Shown here in pieces: positions 21,556-26,954 of a stretch of DNA of 64,000 nt. Under the pieces are notes generated by a model. The model saw only the letters and a list, made by a program, of their open reading frames with translations. It did not search any database and was not told the origin of the DNA. Source of the DNA: Tunturiibacter empetritectus (GTDB lineage Bacteria; Acidobacteriota; Terriglobia; Terriglobales; Acidobacteriaceae); the NCBI RefSeq assembly GCF_014201375.1, contig NZ_JACHDZ010000008.1, positions 62,001 through 126,000 of the forward strand. The letters are read 5' to 3'. Each line of letters opens with the position of its first letter. Position 1 is the first letter of the stretch. The position numbers and the translations under genes were made by a program.

Positions 21556-22344
21556 TTATCTGCCAAGCTTCATCAGCTGTTCGTAGACGCGCTCCAGAGG
21601 CTCCGGGCTCACGCTGATCTTTCCTCGAAATGGATTGTCCATGGCCGCCACCAGAAAGATCATCAATCCCAGGAGCGCCGAGAGGATGATGGTCATCCAG
21701 CAGTGCATGCTGAGGCTCTCCAGCGCAAAGAACCAGGTAAGAGCGATGCTGAGCAGAGCGCCGACCAATACCAGTGTCCACAGCGGGCCGGAGAGTCCTG
21801 CTGTCACACTGTCGAGCCTTGCTCGCCGGTTTTCCACGAGCAGATCGAAGTGGTGATACGCCTCTCCCTGGACAACTCGTTCCCCACTCGTCGTAGGATC
21901 GAACTGCAGAAAATCGGTTTGGAACTTCGACAGGATCGCGCTCGCTCCGGTGGGGATGATTCCCTGTCGCTGCTGCGGCCAGCCGACGTCGATGACTTGA
22001 CGGGTATATTGGCGGAGGTCCTCTTGCAGCACGCTGCGCACCGGATCGGGATAGCCTTGAAGGTCGCGGTACAGAACGCCCAGAGCTGTCGCTTCGTGAT
22101 CGACCCTTCTCTCTACATCGGAGTAGGTCGTCCATGTACCGACGGCAAGCAAGCCTAGCGTGATGCCATAAAAGACGGTGACTGCGGCGAGGTAGAAGCC
22201 GACGATGTCGTTATGGGATTGGCTGCGGTGGAGACGGCCAACCCATCTTCGCGTGGCGAAGAGACCCGCTAATCCAAAGGCGACAAAAACCGCTACGGTC
22301 AACAGTCCAAAGAGCCAGTTCGGAATGTCGTAGATCCAATACAT
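21556..22344 (-). CDS. DUF4239 (bestrophin-like domain) membrane protein
   Basis: A 262-residue inner-membrane protein. The ATG at 22344 has AGGA nine bases upstream. Two hydrophobic helices lie in the first ~75 residues and two more at ~180-225, with a ~100-residue soluble middle part (HEATALGVLYRDLQGYP). This arrangement, with FFALESLSMHCWMT before the last helix, matches DUF4239, whose members are distantly compared with bestrophin channels. It is convergent with yvcK and monocistronic. Function unknown. Confidence 0.72.
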   Translation of the reverse strand: MYWIYDIPNWLFGLLTVAVFVAFGLAGLFATRRWVGRLHRSQSHNDIVGFYLAAVTVFYGITLGLLAVGTWTTYSDVERRVDHEATALGVLYRDLQGYPDPVRSVLQEDLRQYTRQVIDVGWPQQRQGIIPTGASAILSKFQTDFLQFDPTTSGERVVQGEAYHHFDLLVENRRARLDSVTAGLSGPLWTLVLVGALLSIALTWFFALESLSMHCWMTIILSALLGLMIFLVAAMDNPFRGKISVSPEPLERVYEQLMKLGR

Positions 22345-22410
22345 TCGCAATCATCCTTCAGAGCTGAGGGGTTGTGACGCGAGTCTTTCATGGCAGCATG
22401 AAGGCGTCAA

Positions 22411-22621
22411 ACCTTCTAAAGATGGATGTCCTGCCGGACGGGCCCACTGCGCGTGGGGCGGGCGTTCGCACGCCTTTTTAGAGCTTCGCGTGGTCCTCCC
22501 GTTGGTCGGAATGAGCGTAATTCGCGACCATCGGGAGCGCCGGGCGAAGCGGTATACACGTCACGAAGTGACCGCGCTCCGCGCAGGAGGCCCGTCCGGC
22601 AGGACAGCGTCTTTAGAGGGT
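22411..22621. repeat. Inverted pair of R1 intergenic repeats (BIME/REP-like)
   Basis: One copy runs forward (22425-22509, starting GATGTCCTGCCGGACGGGCC) and one backward (22520-22609, ending GGCCCGTCCGGCAGGACAGC). The outer arms extend the pairing through TTCTAAAG / CTTTAGAG, so the element can fold into a large hairpin. The inner ends share CTCCCGTTGGTCGG-like sequence. The backward copy contains the palindrome GTCACTTCGTGAC (read on the minus strand). A third copy lies at 26696-26783. The right end touches the rlmN stop, so it may also act as its terminator. Confidence 0.8.
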
Positions 22622-23785
22622 GGCGATCTCGACGAGGGGTGGCTGCTCGAGGGTGCGCTTTAGCTGGCCGCAGGCGGCGTAGATGTCTCGGCCGCGGGGC
22701 TTGCGGATGAAGGCGGGGATGCCTGCGTCGCGGAGACGCTTCTGGAAGGTGCCTACGTCCTGCGGGGTGGGCTCGTGGAAGGGCATGTCGGGGCCTGAGT
22801 TCCAGACGATGAGGTTGATTTTGGCGCTAAGGTTTTTCAGGAGCGCGATGAGTTCGTCGGCGTGCTGGCGCTGGTCGTTGATGCCCCCGAGGAGGACGTA
22901 CTCGAAGGTGACGCGCTCGCGGGGGCGCAGCGGGACGGCGGCGATGGCCTCGAGGAGCGCGGCGATGTTCCACTTGCGGGTGATGGGCATGATGGACTCG
23001 CGGACGACGTCGTTGGAGGCGTTGAGGCTGACGGCCAGCTTGGGGCGGATGGTCTCGCCGGCGAACTGCTCGATGCCGGGGAGGATGCCGGAGGTGCTGA
23101 CGGTCATGCGGGACTCGGGGATGCTCATGGGGCCAGCTAGGAGCCGGACGGCGTCCATGAAACTGGCGTAGTTGAGGAAGGGTTCGCCCATGCCCATGAA
23201 GACCAGATTGATACGGTCGCGGCCTACTTCGACCTTGTGGCGGTTGAGGACGGCCGCTACCTGGCCGGCTATCTCGCCTGGGGTGAGGTTGCGGCGGATG
23301 CCCAGCTTGGCGGTAAGGCAGAACTGGCAGTTGACGGCACAGCCTACCTGGCTGGAGATGCAGATGGTGGCGCGCTTGTAGTCGTCGTCATCGTGAGACG
23401 GGTGCTCTTCTTCCTCGGCTGCCTGGGTTCCGTCGCCGCGCTCGCCTCCGTCGCCTCCTGGCATCCAGACGGTCTCGACAGTTTCTCCGTCGGCCATGCG
23501 GACTAGATAGCGTTCGGTGCCGTCGATGGAGCGGGCGGTCTGGAGGAGCTCGGGCAGGCCGACGGTGTGGCCTGCGTCTTTGAGTGCCTGGCGGAGAGCT
23601 GCGGGGAGGGTGGTGATCTGGTCGAGCGAGGGGGTGCGCTGGGCGTAGAGGGCCTCGTAGAGCTGGCGCGCCCGGTAGGCGGGCTGGCCGTGGTTCTCCA
23701 TCAGACCGGTCAGCTCATGGAGGGAGGCGCCGAAGAGCGGTTTGTCTTCGACTTTTGGATTAGGTAAATTTTCTATGTCATTCAT
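22613..23785 (-). CDS. rlmN: Dual-specificity 23S rRNA / tRNA adenine-C2 methyltransferase (radical SAM)
   Basis: About 390 residues from the ATG at 23785; an in-frame ATG at 23821 is also possible and neither has a clear ribosome site. Radical-SAM cysteines are in CAVNCQFC (~155), preceded by ISSQVGC, and the C-terminal Cys in DIYAACGQL is the one that forms the methyl-transfer intermediate. FMGMGEPFLNY and SLNAS are typical RlmN motifs. The enzyme methylates A2503 of 23S rRNA and A37 of some tRNAs. A ~25-residue Gly/Glu/Asp-rich insertion (GGDGGERGDGTQ, EEEE, DDDD) sits between ETVWMP and KRATICIS, where most RlmN proteins have a short loop. Confidence 0.93.
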   Translation of the reverse strand: MNDIENLPNPKVEDKPLFGASLHELTGLMENHGQPAYRARQLYEALYAQRTPSLDQITTLPAALRQALKDAGHTVGLPELLQTARSIDGTERYLVRMADGETVETVWMPGGDGGERGDGTQAAEEEEHPSHDDDDYKRATICISSQVGCAVNCQFCLTAKLGIRRNLTPGEIAGQVAAVLNRHKVEVGRDRINLVFMGMGEPFLNYASFMDAVRLLAGPMSIPESRMTVSTSGILPGIEQFAGETIRPKLAVSLNASNDVVRESIMPITRKWNIAALLEAIAAVPLRPRERVTFEYVLLGGINDQRQHADELIALLKNLSAKINLIVWNSGPDMPFHEPTPQDVGTFQKRLRDAGIPAFIRKPRGRDIYAACGQLKRTLEQPPLVEIATL

Positions 23786-23869
23786 TTGTAAATACTTAAA
23801 TATTTTATGATTCCAGCACATGAATCTGGCTGAAAGGGACGAGCGGTTTGGGCAGGATCGAATTCGTCG

Positions 23870-23905
23870 GGATCCTTCGCTCCGCTCAGGATGACGGCAA
23901 AGACT
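23870..23905 (+). repeat. Dispersed intergenic repeat, family R2, copy 1
   Basis: GATCCTTCGCTCCGCTCAGG then ATGACGGCAAAGAC. The same pattern (CTTCG...CGCTCAGG...AGGATGACAGCAAAGAC) recurs at 28244-28291. Confidence 0.65.
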
Positions 23906-23986
23906 TTAGGATGTCGGCAAAAAACTGTTCGCTTCTAGTTGCAACGGCCAGTTTGCTCCGGATAGGAGGACGTCGCGCGGCCTAGA

Positions 23987-24038
23987 TTGATAGCAAAGGC
24001 TTTAGATAATTGGTTGATAACAAAGGCTTTAGATCCAT
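23987..24038 (+). repeat. Two-copy tandem repeat, 27-base period
   Basis: TTGATAGCAAAGGCTTTAGA at 23987 and TTGATAACAAAGGCTTTAGA at 24014 differ at one position. A weaker relative (GGCAAAGACTTTAGGAT) lies at ~23894. Confidence 0.7.
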
Positions 24039-24140
24039 CGAAGCGTAGAGCTGAGCCGGAGCATCTATATAAGTCTACTCCGTTAGGTGGAAAAGATGGC
24101 GCGGGTTGGGCTGTGAAACAATGGAGTCTGAAGGAGTCTC

Positions 24141-25457
24141 ATGTCTGTAACGCTAGTAGATGATGCCGCAATTACGAAGACTGCCACGCGCAACATCAGG
24201 AAAACTGTGTTGTCGAATGGCCTGTTGGTACTGACCGAGAGCATGCCGCACGTTCGGAGCGTCTCGATGGGGGCGTGGGTGGGCTCTGGTTCGCGGGACG
24301 AGACGGCTGGGGTGAACGGGGTCTCGCACTTCGTGGAGCATATGGTGTTCAAGGGTACGACCTCGCGGTCGGCGCAGCAGATTGCCCGGGAGGTGGATAC
24401 GATCGGGGGCAATCTGGACGCGTTTACCGGGAAGGAGACGGTCTGCTTCAACATCAAGGTGCTGGATGAGAATGTGGCGCCGGCGCTGGATGTGCTGTCG
24501 GACCTGGTGCTGCACCCGACGTTTGCTCCTGAGGATGTGGAGCGCGAGAAGGGCGTGATTCTGGAAGAGATCAAGATGGACGAGGATAACCCCGACTATC
24601 TGGTGCATGAGGTGTGGACACAGAACTTTTGGAAGGGCGACGCGCTGGGCAGGCCGATTCTGGGGACGGCGAAGACGGTTTCGAGCTTCGATCAGCAGAC
24701 GCTGCTGAACTTTTATGCGGGGCAGTTCACTCCGCGGAATATGGTGTTTTCGGCGGCGGGAAACCTGGAGCATGATGCGTTTGTGGCCCAGGTGGAGCGG
24801 GAGTTCGGCTCACTGGCGGCCAGCGGGGACAGCGTTCCTGAGAAGGTGGCGGCGCCGAGGGCTACTCCGCACATTACGCTGAAGAGGAAGAAGTCGCTGG
24901 AGCAGGTGCAGCTTTGTCTTGGGATGCCGGCGCCTCCGGTGAACGATTCTCGGCGGTATGTGGTGTACCTGATGAACACGATGCTGGGCGGCGGGATGAG
25001 CTCGCGGCTGTTCCAGACGATTCGCGAGGATCGGGGGCTGGCGTATTCGATCTACTCGGAGATGAACCCGTTCCGGGATACTGGCTCGCTGTGCGTGTAT
25101 GCGGGGACCTCGGTGGACAAGACGGAGGAGGTGTTGCAGCTTACCCTGCAGGAGTTGCGGCGTCTGAAGGAAGAGACGGTCAGCGAGGTGGAGTTGAAGC
25201 GGGCCAAGGACCAGCTGAAGAGCAATATGGTGATTGGGCTGGAGAGCTCGGGCAGCAGGATGGCGAATCTGGCGCGGCAGCAGATGTACTTTGGGCGGTT
25301 TTCCGGCGTGGATGAGATTATGCACGAGATCGAAGCGGTATCGACGACCGACGTGCAGGAGTTGGCGCAGGAGCTGTTCAGGCCGGAGACGATGGCGTTG
25401 ACGCTGCTGGGAAATCTTGGCACGATGAAGATCGAGCGGGAAGATTTGGCCTGCTAG
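24141..25457 (+). CDS. M16 family zinc metalloprotease
   Basis: A 438-residue pitrilysin-type (M16B) protease. The inverted zinc motif HFVEH is at residues 63-67, followed by the third ligand region EREKGVILEEIKMDEDNP (split at ~135-150), where a Glu completes the site. FNIKVLDEN and YAGTSVDKTEE are family features. The second half carries the usual inactive repeat of the fold with the substrate-binding region RGLAYSIYSEM. No signal peptide is evident, so it is probably cytoplasmic and degrades peptides. It stands ahead of the pilin-lolA pair; the 65-base gap leaves co-transcription open. Confidence 0.92.
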   Translation: MSVTLVDDAAITKTATRNIRKTVLSNGLLVLTESMPHVRSVSMGAWVGSGSRDETAGVNGVSHFVEHMVFKGTTSRSAQQIAREVDTIGGNLDAFTGKETVCFNIKVLDENVAPALDVLSDLVLHPTFAPEDVEREKGVILEEIKMDEDNPDYLVHEVWTQNFWKGDALGRPILGTAKTVSSFDQQTLLNFYAGQFTPRNMVFSAAGNLEHDAFVAQVEREFGSLAASGDSVPEKVAAPRATPHITLKRKKSLEQVQLCLGMPAPPVNDSRRYVVYLMNTMLGGGMSSRLFQTIREDRGLAYSIYSEMNPFRDTGSLCVYAGTSVDKTEEVLQLTLQELRRLKEETVSEVELKRAKDQLKSNMVIGLESSGSRMANLARQQMYFGRFSGVDEIMHEIEAVSTTDVQELAQELFRPETMALTLLGNLGTMKIEREDLAC

Positions 25458-25522
25458 GTCTCGCTGCTGATAGAGTTTGTTCGGTGGTAGAGATACAGAA
25501 TTGCCGAGGATTGATAAAGACA

Positions 25523-26050
25523 ATGAATTTACGGGACCGATTGCGCGCAGGGCTTGAGGGACGACCGAACGAAGACGGATTTACGCTGATCGAGCTGCTG
25601 ATCGTGATGTCGGTGATGCTGATCCTGATGACGCTTGCAGTGCCACAGCTGTTGAAGCTGAGGAAGCAGGCGCAGGAGACCTCGGCGGTGCAGTCTTTGA
25701 GGACGATCGGGCAAGCAGAGTTGCAGTATAACTCGGCTTATCCGGCGAATGGATTCTCGTGCTCGCTGGCTACGCTGGGTGGGGATCCGAAGTCGGGCGC
25801 GCCTACGTCACAGTCGGCGCAGCTGATTACGCCGGATCTGGCGAGCGGGCAGAAGGCCGGGTATACGTTTGCCATCACCAATTGCACGAAGGTGACGGTG
25901 AACAATCAGGATATGTATACCTCGTTTGAGATTACGGCGGTTCCGAACTCGATTGGGAAGACCGGCGACCGCGGCTTCTGTACGGATGAGAACAATACGA
26001 TCCGCTATGACCCGGCGGGTGGAACCAACTGCACACAGCCCATTCAGTAA
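25523..26050 (+). CDS. Type IV pilin-like / pseudopilin protein
   Basis: About 175 residues from the ATG at 25523 (a GTG at 25484 is possible but lacks a ribosome site). Residues ~20-45 are a type III (prepilin) signal: a charged leader, then the cleavage site G-FTLIELL with the conserved Glu at +5 and a hydrophobic helix to about residue 40. The globular part has four Cys that could form disulfides. It is likely a minor pilin or pseudopilin processed by PilD, but no pilus assembly gene is in the window. Its stop overlaps the lolA start (TAATG). Confidence 0.85.
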   Translation: MNLRDRLRAGLEGRPNEDGFTLIELLIVMSVMLILMTLAVPQLLKLRKQAQETSAVQSLRTIGQAELQYNSAYPANGFSCSLATLGGDPKSGAPTSQSAQLITPDLASGQKAGYTFAITNCTKVTVNNQDMYTSFEITAVPNSIGKTGDRGFCTDENNTIRYDPAGGTNCTQPIQ

Positions 26051-26685
26051 TGTTGGCGAGGGCTCTGCTGTTCGCGTCGTTTTGCTGCGCTCCGCTGCTG
26101 GTTGCGCAGGAGAACGACGCGTTGGTGCGTAAGGTGGATGACCATTACAACCATCTCAGTTCCCTGCGGGCTCATTACACGGAGAGCTATGCGGGGATGG
26201 GGATGAACCGCACGGAAGAGGGCACGCTGCTGCTGAGGAAGCCGGGGCGGATGCGGTGGAGCTATGCTGCTCCGGTGGGCAAGGTGTTTGTGCTGGATGG
26301 GAAGTTTGCTTGGTTCTACACGCCGGGCGATGCGCAGGCTACACGGGTGCCGGCGAAGCAGTTGGATGATCTGCGGTCGCCGTTGCGGTTTTTGCTGGGG
26401 CATACACAGTTGAAGAAAGAGCTCGATGGCCTGGCTGTGGTGGCGGATGGGAGCGGGTTCCGGATCTCGGGTGTGCCGAAGGGGATGGCGCAGAGGGTGA
26501 AGCTGCTGTCTCTTTGGGTGACTGCGGGCGGGGCGATTGAGCGGATGAAGCTGGAAGAGGTGGATGGGGCGGTGACGGAGTTCGCGTTTACCGGGATGCA
26601 GGAGAATGTTCCGGTGAAGGATGCGGACTTTGCGTTTGTTCCACCAGATGGGGTGAGTGTGGTGGAGGGGTTGCCGCCGATCTAG
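26050..26685 (+). CDS. lolA: LolA-type outer-membrane lipoprotein carrier
   Basis: A 211-residue periplasmic protein. It begins with a signal peptide (ALLFASFCCAPLLVAQ) and matches the LolA fold: YTESYAGMGMNRTEEGTLLLRKPGRMRWSY (~37-67, over two motifs), VFVLDGKFAWFYTPGDAQ and SPLRFLLG. LolA carries lipoproteins from LolCDE to the outer membrane. The ATG overlaps the preceding pilin stop by one base. No lolB or lolCDE is in the window. Confidence 0.88.
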   Translation: MLARALLFASFCCAPLLVAQENDALVRKVDDHYNHLSSLRAHYTESYAGMGMNRTEEGTLLLRKPGRMRWSYAAPVGKVFVLDGKFAWFYTPGDAQATRVPAKQLDDLRSPLRFLLGHTQLKKELDGLAVVADGSGFRISGVPKGMAQRVKLLSLWVTAGGAIERMKLEEVDGAVTEFAFTGMQENVPVKDADFAFVPPDGVSVVEGLPPI

Positions 26686-26954
26686 TTATGGTGGGGATGT
26701 CCTGCCGGACGGGCCTCCTACGCGGAGTGCGGTCACTTCGTGACCTGTATACCCCTTCGGTCGGCGCTCCCGTTGGTCGCGACTTGAGATTCGCGCGGAA
26801 TCAAAAAAGCAGATTAAAACCAGATGTAAATCGAGTTAGCGAAGCGGGATAAGACGAGTTTCGCTGAGCAGACGGTAGTAAAATCATGACAACCTTCAAG
26901 TCGAATTTGTCGTGGAACGCGCGTGCGAGATGCGCAGAAAAGTAGAGATAGATT
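26686..26954. other. Intergenic region with an R1 repeat
   Basis: No gene seen. It holds one R1 repeat at 26696-26783; the remainder must contain the promoter of the HAD phosphatase gene. Confidence 0.5.
26696..26783 (+). repeat. R1 intergenic repeat, single copy
   Basis: Begins GATGTCCTGCCGGACGGGCC and ends CTCCCGTTGGTCGCGA. It matches the minus-strand reading of 22520-22609 closely along its length, including GGTCACTTCGTGACC and GTATACC. Confidence 0.8.

What the first reader, a model, noticed from the sequence alone, without database searches (positions are those of the whole stretch)
22411..22621. Head-to-head pair of a palindromic repeat, BIME/REP-like, with a single copy 4 kb away
An ~85-base unit beginning TGTCCTGCCGGACGGGCC occurs forward at 22425, backward at 22520-22609 and forward at 26696-26783. 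Paired inverted units plus single units are how REP/BIME elements are arranged, and these depend on a RAYT transposase that is not in the window. The unit contains the nested palindromes TGCCGGACGGGCC-like and GTCACTTCGTGAC.
Basis: seen in the sequence. Interest (0 to 1): 0.55.

Follow-up and report, generated by a model that had tools for sequence, protein, structure and literature searches.

The report
Strand-oriented family of palindromic intergenic repeats
The repeated sequence is one of about 300 copies of a hairpin-rich DNA element that sits between genes, often just behind stop codons, in a soil bacterium and its relatives; it resembles known REP/BIME repeats, but no matching mobility gene was found and its single copies point along the G-rich DNA strand.

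Summary
The three copies are real, and the genome holds 295 places with the 18-base tip (at most 2 mismatches; reversed-pattern control 2). The unit is about 82 or 97 nt long, with up to four hairpins that covary between copies. In 425 kb, 104 of 107 units lie outside called genes and 46 of 107 tips lie within 20 nt behind a same-strand stop codon, against 5.6 +/- 2.2 for random intergenic points. Typed pairs are nearly all heterodimers, without a clear target duplication. It is a REP/BIME-like family.

The RAYT part is not supported. The genome's RAYT sits among a different repeat, no unit lies beside 28 Y1/RAYT loci, and five genomes with 62-177 copies have no RAYT match while three with one pair have two to four.

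Unexpected: single units follow the G-rich strand in 37 of 40 cases (G000), 24 of 24 (G041) and 12 of 13 (G014), while only 55% of genes do, and they are no more decayed than pair arms. This suggests replication-linked spread or loss of single-stranded DNA. No insertion was caught and no enzyme identified.

The parts
22427..22508 (+). Arm B of the head-to-head pair (82 nt, tip to inner end)
22461..22479 (+). Terminator-like hairpin GGCGT-TCGC-ACGCC followed by TTTTT inside arm B (read by eye; the terminator scan lists none)
   Evidence: scan negative; helix present in the fold
22509..22524 (.). Centre of the pair between the two inner ends
22525..22606 (-). Arm A of the pair; its tip lies 6 nt behind the stop codon of the rlmN-like gene
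22560..22572 (-). GTCACTTCGTGAC hairpin of arm A
26698..26779 (+). Single unit, type A; tip 12 nt behind the stop codon of the lolA-like gene; forward strand is the G-rich strand
26731..26745 (+). GGTCACTTCGTGACC hairpin of the single unit
22613..23785 (-). rlmN-like gene (Radical_SAM, RlmN_N) whose 3' end carries the pair; start as set by my gene caller
26050..26685 (+). lolA-like gene (LolA) whose 3' end carries the single unit

Best explanation
The sequence belongs to a family of non-autonomous, REP/BIME-like extragenic palindromic elements of one acidobacterial genus (Edaphobacter in the broad GTDB sense). The building block is a unit of about 82 nt (arm types A, B) or 96-99 nt (type C) with a fixed tip (TGTCCTGCCGGACGGGCC) and a fixed inner end (CTCCCGTTGGTCG), occurring alone or as head-to-head pairs of mostly unlike arms. 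SHOWN: copy number, extragenic placement with an excess behind stop codons, hairpins kept by covariation, heterodimeric pairs, a common orientation of single units along the G-rich strand, no link to RAYT genes. INFERRED: units spread or are lost through single-stranded DNA exposed at the replication fork, as IS200/IS605-type HUH enzymes do, by an enzyme that is either lost or not recognised here; copies persist between genes, often just behind stop codons, where they do least harm and can serve as 3'-end hairpins of the mRNA. Likelihood of the family assignment about 0.9; of the replication-strand mechanism about 0.5.
For: 295 places against 2 for the reversed pattern. 3 of 107 units inside called genes while 82% of the sequence is coding; 4 of 34 in evenly spaced stretches of G041. 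46 of 107 tips within -2..20 nt of a same-strand stop, random 5.6 +/- 2.2; 15 of 34 in G041. 23 of 67 convergent gaps hold units, and in the 12 with a pair only 14.5 nt (median) is left outside it, against 77.5 nt in free convergent gaps (p 0.008). Hairpins of 37 type-A units: 98.9% of cells paired, 55 cells with double changes, at most 4 when slid, none of 500 shuffles as high on these and on the covariation score; a sister subfamily in G027 has the compensatory tip TGGCCTGCCGGCCGGGCC. Orientation with the G-rich strand: 37/40 in G000, 9/9 evenly sampled and 15/15 selected in G041, 12/12 in G082, 12/13 in G014, 11/12 in G083 (G041/G082 and G014/G083 are near relatives sharing sites). Genes are with the skew in only 211 of 386 cases; a second count of G000 singles gives 37 of 41, p 1.8e-6 against that rate. 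The skew belongs to the stretch and not to gene strand. At most 31 of 41 G000 singles end at the inner end with no second-arm match. That IS608 and ISDra2 target the lagging-strand template is stated in the abstract of PMC6006769 (seen in the listings).
Against: No insertion event was caught: 13 of 13 comparable G041 sites hold the element in G082 (98.4% identity); of 13 comparable G014 sites in G083 (97.6%) one lacks it, with a piece of the tip left behind, which looks like deletion, and one is single against pair. No enzyme was identified. G027, with weak skew, shows no orientation bias (32/55) and G031 has 1 of 2. The skew has not been tied to replication firmly: the dnaA position and two sampled stretches of the same contig in G000 (-0.26 to its left, +0.13 to its right) only agree with it, and the skew changes sign more often than one origin and terminus would give. 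Two 3-nt flank matches against 0.36 expected leave a very short target duplication in a few of 32 pairs possible. 3 of 40 (or 4 of 41) G000 singles go against the skew. 9 of 41 G000 singles keep a second-arm remnant, and by eye a few more do so below the script's threshold, which favours loss over insertion for those. In one search two measures do not exceed the shuffles (pairs with a double change 6 against 4.7, 31 of 500; pair types 477 of 500).
Confidence: 0.5

Rival explanations
1. Pairs are the original element, and singles arise when one arm is deleted at the replication fork. Loss has a polarity because hairpins form on the lagging-strand template, so the surviving arm always points the same way. 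No directed insertion is needed.
For: One single in G014 corresponds to a pair with a degenerate second arm in G083. At the terminase locus G084, G028, G002 and G047 lack all or part of one arm where G031 and G041 have both. 9 of 41 G000 singles still show a second-arm remnant, and a few of the other 31 show shortened pieces by eye. PMC3116915 argues that REP singlets are remnants of doublets (passages).
Against: Singles are not more decayed than pair arms: tip identity 0.944 against 0.932, inner-end mismatches 0.30 against 0.27, unlike the singlets of PMC3116915. Most singles show no second-arm match (at most 31 of 41 in G000, 19 of 23 in G041, 11 of 12 in G014).
Confidence: 0.27
2. The elements are kept as a functional RNA or DNA structure: a 3'-end mRNA hairpin and (for arm B) intrinsic terminator placed behind stop codons, copied around by recombination rather than by transposition. 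This does not exclude the other readings.
For: Tight placement behind stops and filling of convergent gaps; covariation; RNA fold of the window's pair z = -10.3; an orthologous element directly behind a terminase-like gene in 11 of 30 genomes read, and in a twelfth where the reading frame runs into it; in four of them (G001, G023, G044, G048) it is the only pair in the genome, with at most one further 2-mismatch tip, the level of the control; whole-element identity 77-94% among those four against 53-58% at fourfold sites of the terminase gene; interior sequences exchanged at fixed sites.
Against: Orientation of singles follows the skew and not transcription: 14 singles are with the skew and against the local genes, 1 the reverse. 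The terminator scan finds none in the pair. The window's single unit folds no better than shuffles (z = -1.3). The downstream gene at the terminase locus is as conserved as the element (83-89%), and element plus spacer may have been exchanged between G001 and G048.
Confidence: 0.3
3. The genome's own RAYT mobilises the unit in trans, as in REP/REPIN systems.
For: A RAYT is present in the genome; the arrangement is REP-like.
Against: Different repeat around the RAYT; no unit beside any of 28 Y1/RAYT loci read; G002, G014, G027, G028 and G005 have 62-177 copies and no NF047646 match, while G001, G023 and G044 have 2-4 matches and one pair. G005 does have another Y1 transposase.
Confidence: 0.07
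4. A MITE of a DDE transposon with 18-bp terminal inverted repeats.
For: Perfect or near-perfect 18-bp inverted ends in pairs of about 180 bp.
Against: No clear target duplication; single units without a second end; 12 genes that lie alone between two neighbouring units do not look like transposases (first 80 residues read by eye, no family search).
Confidence: 0.06

Closest known systems
REP / BIME / REPIN families
   Same: High copy, extragenic, palindromic, inverted pairs and singles, mostly between convergent or tandem genes, heterodimers common (PMC3733652, passages; PMC3116915, passages).
   Different: Unit of about 82 or 97 nt with up to four hairpins instead of 20-40 bp; no unpaired GTAG/CGTC tag; no RAYT beside it; singles as well preserved as pair arms and oriented along the G-rich strand.
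TIR repeats of TIRYT genes (PMC3733652, section 16 read)
   Same: Repeats, some self-complementary, as singles and dimers; TIRYT genes are known from Acidobacteria; that paper also finds no obvious correlation between tyrosine transposase genes and repeat families (passage).
   Different: The RAYT/TIRYT-like gene of this genome has its own, different repeat with 6 places.
IS200/IS605 elements (HUH Y1 transposases)
   Same: Hairpin ends and targeting of the lagging-strand template (abstract of PMC6006769); no target duplication (recalled).
   Different: No transposase gene linked to the unit; not an insertion sequence.
ERIC / RU / Correia-type intergenic MITEs (recalled; start of an RU abstract seen)
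   Same: 100-200 bp intergenic repeats with inverted repeats.
   Different: Pairs of separable units, oriented singles, other sequence and hosts.

Membership tests
REP/BIME (RAYT-associated) | High copy number, extragenic, palindromic | tested here: met
REP/BIME (RAYT-associated) | Inverted pairs plus single units | tested here: met
   33 pairs (one of them a 51-bp miniature, L078:5611) and 41 singles among 107 units
REP/BIME (RAYT-associated) | Unit of 20-40 bp with an unpaired GTAG or CGTC tag at one end | tested here: not met
   Typed arms are 75-99 nt, mostly 82 or 97. By inspection of alignment A1 (37 type-A units) GTAG occurs only as the reversed loop of CTACGC variants, and CGTC only inside the paired tip.
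REP/BIME (RAYT-associated) | A RAYT gene flanked by the same repeat | tested here: not met
   none among 28 Y1/RAYT loci read
REPIN | Singlets are decayed remnants of doublets | tested here: not met
   singles 0.944, pair arms 0.932 tip identity; 413 of 500 permutations reach the observed difference
REPIN | Doublet moves as a unit | not testable with these tools
   No insertion found among 26 comparable sites in near relatives; needs reads or experiments
IS200/IS605-like single-strand transposition | Orientation tied to the replication strand | tested here: inconclusive
   Orientation tied to GC skew, not to genes; link of skew to replication only indicated
IS200/IS605-like single-strand transposition | Identified Y1 transposase linked to the ends | tested here: not met
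   No unit beside Y1/RAYT loci; no Y1_Tnp match at E 0.001 in G014, G002 and G028
DDE MITE | Target-site duplication | tested here: inconclusive
   32 pairs, flank matches as in shuffles except two 3-nt matches against 0.36 expected
Rfam structured RNA | Match at the gathering score | tested here: not met
   none in window 22300-26900

The most novel reading that the evidence does not exclude
The family is a RAYT-less single-strand element: its units are inserted from lagging-strand ssDNA by an enzyme not yet recognised as a transposase, so that each intact single copy is a fossil arrow of fork direction, and its pairs are a second, undirected state of the same element with an interior that can flip in place (behind rlmN A lies next to the gene in G000, G014 and G002, and by its distal arm in G083, but B does in G041 and G082).
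Probability: 0.22. Interest if true: 0.72.

Novelty: new variant of a known kind. Interest (0 to 1): 0.5.

Why it matters
How REP-like repeats spread without a linked RAYT is an open question (PMC3733652 raises it for CGTC repeats). Here is a large family in cultured soil bacteria, absent or nearly absent in some relatives and at 60 to about 300 copies in others, whose single copies carry a strand signal. That makes a single-strand mechanism directly testable by comparing closed genomes, and offers natural losses, in-place inversions and an old orthologous copy behind a terminase-like gene for study.

Tried and rejected
RAYT partner: tested with PF01797 (own genome and 11 relatives) and NF047646 (14 genomes); rejected as above. 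Viral spread: one 18-mer match in IMG/VR is inside a coding stretch without the rest of the unit; no match in plasmids or phages. Known RNA: no Rfam family in window 22300-26900. Autonomous copy flanked by units: 12 genes that lie alone between neighbouring units, first 80 residues read by eye, none looks like a transposase. Strand runs seen in the place lists were first taken for a replication bias, then dropped because the lists are incomplete (a minus-strand exact copy at about G041:C1:4418884, L160:18885, is missing from them); the bias was re-tested on whole stretches only. Strong claim of purifying selection at the terminase locus: dropped, because the downstream gene is as conserved and the G001/G048 segment may have been exchanged. 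lolA empty site: flanks too diverged to place the ends. Fold of the window's single unit alone: not better than shuffles (z -1.3).

Rows dropped: 8 of 21 G041 clusters and 3 of 16 G014 clusters were not covered by the stretches held of the other genome and were left out of the counts; clusters within about 250 bases of a stretch end were skipped by the script. In one search, 23 of 107 arms fell outside types A, B, C. The 19 G000 stretches used for counts were chosen because they hold copies, so densities from them are not genome averages; L063 was chosen for the RAYT. The 30 terminase loci are the best matches out of 48 genomes with one.

Papers: PMC3733652 passages and section 16; PMC3116915 passages; PMC6006769 passages and start of abstract; all others only in search listings. 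Searches for this family in print: (and 77 for the skew); no title or abstract start listed named it, but only the listed part of the hits was seen and most subscription papers are not held.

Full report
OBSERVATION. The 18-base tip is exact at 22427 (+), 22589-22606 (-) and 26698 (+), with 0.06 matches expected by chance at up to 3 mismatches. The window belongs to a 4.83 Mb genome in 15 contigs, which holds 154 + 141 places with at most 2 mismatches, against 1 + 1 for the reversed pattern. The first copy differs from the other two in its middle part: 73% against 91% alike.

ANATOMY. In 425,019 bases (the window and 19 stretches chosen because they hold copies) I found 107 units with at most 3 mismatches in the tip: 41 single and 66 in 33 head-to-head pairs. 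The unit runs from TGTCCTGCCGGACGGGCC to CTCCCGTTGGTCG. Three arm types account for 84 of 107: A (37, mostly 82 nt, with GTCACTTCGTGAC and CCTTCGG), B (17, mostly 82 nt, with GGCGTTCACACGCC-TTTTT) and C (30, 96-99 nt); the other 23 are variants, carry an insert or lack the inner end. Of 33 pairs, 15 are A-B, 7 A-C, 2 C-C, 1 B-C and 8 contain an untyped arm; there is no A-A pair among the typed ones. PMC3733652 reports a preference for heterodimers in most REP families and suggests protection from hairpin cleavage (passages). On 37 type-A units four hairpins give 98.9% standard pairs and 55 cells with changes on both sides, against at most 4 when the partner is slid and none of 500 shuffles; two other measures (pairs with a double change, pair types) do not exceed the shuffles. 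The copies are paralogues, so these counts are not independent events. G027 carries 87 + 90 places, nearly all listed ones of a sister subfamily in which the tip hairpin changed on both sides (TGGCCTGCCGGCCGGGCC). The window's pair folds at -118.8 kcal/mol as RNA, z -10.3, and z -9.0 as DNA; the single alone is not remarkable (z -1.3).

SURROUNDINGS. A simple hexamer gene caller of my own gives 82% coding. 3 of 107 units have their tip inside a called gene. 46 of 107 tips lie -2 to 20 nt behind a stop codon on the same strand; 107 random intergenic points with random direction give 5.6 +/- 2.2, largest 13 in 200 trials. In 20 evenly spaced 20-kb stretches of relative G041 (first 1.54 Mb) there are 34 units (13 pairs, 8 singles), 4 inside called genes and 15 close behind a stop. 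In G000, units occupy 23 of 67 convergent, 38 of 202 tandem and 7 of 60 divergent gaps. In 12 convergent gaps with a pair the DNA left outside the pair has a median of 14.5 nt, against 77.5 in free convergent gaps (p 0.008); tandem and divergent gaps show no such difference. In the window the pair follows an rlmN-like gene by 6 nt and the single a lolA-like gene by 12 nt.

DISTRIBUTION. With at most 1 mismatch, 22 of 81 genomes searched have a match, all among the 49 of the window's genus (its own included); none of the 32 genomes from other genera has one. Copy number at that stringency ranges from 0 to 259. Records with a 39-base pattern are named Edaphobacter lichenicola, Edaphobacter sp. 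and Granulicella sp. (the placement of the last in GTDB was not checked); contig lengths identify G014 with strain M8UP30 and G082 with M8UP22. One place is old: behind a terminase-like gene (Terminase_6C) and before a HipA-like gene 11 of 30 genomes read carry the element, whole or partial, 0-6 nt behind the stop codon, and in G019 the reading frame runs into it. Among them are G001, G023, G044 and G048, where it is the only pair in the genome; G001 and G044 have one further 2-mismatch tip each, the level of the control. Behind rlmN and behind the terminase the interior of the pair is reversed in G041 (and, behind rlmN, G082) relative to several others while the outer arms stay.

RAYT TEST. 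G000 has one intact and one truncated RAYT at C1:442-444 kb. They lie in a cluster of another repeat that has 6 places in the genome at up to 3 mismatches, all there; no unit lies in the 18 kb around. No unit with at most 3 mismatches lies in the flanks of 28 Y1/RAYT loci, one 4-mismatch hit apart (some genes are counted twice). Of 14 genomes, G002, G014, G027, G028 and G005 have no NF047646 match although they hold 62-177 copies, and G001, G023 and G044 hold 2-4 matches, one of G044's with a stop inside, and one pair. G005 has another Y1 transposase.

ORIENTATION. The chromosomes show strong, domain-wise GC skew (median absolute value 0.21 in 12-kb windows of the G000 stretches). In the 17 of 21 stretches with absolute skew of 0.10 or more, third codon positions of genes of both strands have the same sign; in 3 of the 4 weaker ones they do not. 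So the skew is not caused by transcription. Single units lie with their forward strand on the G-rich strand in 37 of 40 (G000), 24 of 24 (G041: 9 from evenly spaced stretches, 15 from selected stretches), 12 of 12 (G082), 12 of 13 (G014) and 11 of 12 (G083); 1 of 2 in G031; 32 of 55 in G027, where the skew is weak. The G041/G082 and G014/G083 sets share many sites and are not independent. In a second count G000 gives 37 of 41, against 55% (211 of 386) for genes, p 1.8e-6; where skew and local gene direction disagree, 14 singles follow the skew and 1 the genes. Singles are not more decayed than pair arms. At most 31 of 41 in G000 lack a second arm: 9 keep a remnant, 1 has no inner end, and a few of the 31 show shortened pieces by eye.

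DYNAMICS. Among sites that could be compared, 13 of 13 from G041 are filled in G082; of 13 from G014, 11 are filled alike in G083, one is a pair there, and one is missing with part of the tip left. So recent insertions were not seen and losses were. Interiors were rewritten at fixed sites (L178/L188, L160/L170), which points to exchange between copies.

INTERPRETATION. Shown: a REP/BIME-like extragenic palindromic family with its own unit design, enriched behind stop codons, not linked to RAYTs, with strand-directed singles. Inferred: single-stranded DNA at the fork is the substrate. Directed insertion and directed loss both fit; well-preserved singles without a second arm favour insertion, the partial pairs favour loss. 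A 3'-end role of the hairpins in mRNA is plausible from placement but untested, and the terminator scan was negative. G-rich as leading strand is assumed from the usual rule; the dnaA position in G000 (C4:323575) with skew -0.26 at C4:255-274 kb and +0.13 at C4:515-534 kb agrees but does not prove it, and other sign changes on the same contig show a patchy pattern.

VERDICT. A new variant of a known kind. The orientation of the singles is the surprising part.

Noticed in passing
window 1-64000 and G000 stretches L063-L082: Very strong GC skew (up to about 0.3 overall, 0.6 at third codon positions) that belongs to the stretch and not to the gene strand and changes sign between stretches tens of kb apart.
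   Followed up: partly
L063:8148-10600 (G000 C1:442-445 kb): RAYT gene and a truncated copy inside a cluster of its own repeat (GGTTCGTGCTTCCGCACGAATGCCCA, 6 places, all here), like the TIRYT/TIR arrangement of PMC3733652.
   Followed up: partly
L202, L203, L205, L207 and L249-L278: A terminase-like gene, in the loci read often followed by a HipA-like gene, is found in many genomes of the genus (terminase match in 48 of 62) but not in G000; the element sits directly behind it in 11 of 30 read, including four genomes with no other pair.
   Followed up: partly
rlmN locus in L103, L105 against L101, L104, L107: The interior of the pair is reversed between species while the outer arms stay in place, as if invertible.
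   Followed up: partly
L072:14129, L075:16774, L082:4017 and many G027 units: Some units carry an extra module CACCCCACAAACGAAGACCTGTTTGTGGGGACCCCGG behind the tip, shared by G000 and the G027 subfamily.
   Followed up: no
flanks of L077:779, L077:9430, L082:9919, L180:5053: A second short repeat (CTAAGAAGCTGTCCAGAGAC-like) borders some units on the outside.
   Followed up: no
window about 23860-23900: GGGATCCTTCGCTCCGCTCAGGATGACGG, which looks like another widespread intergenic repeat (recalled, not searched; letters seen).
   Followed up: no
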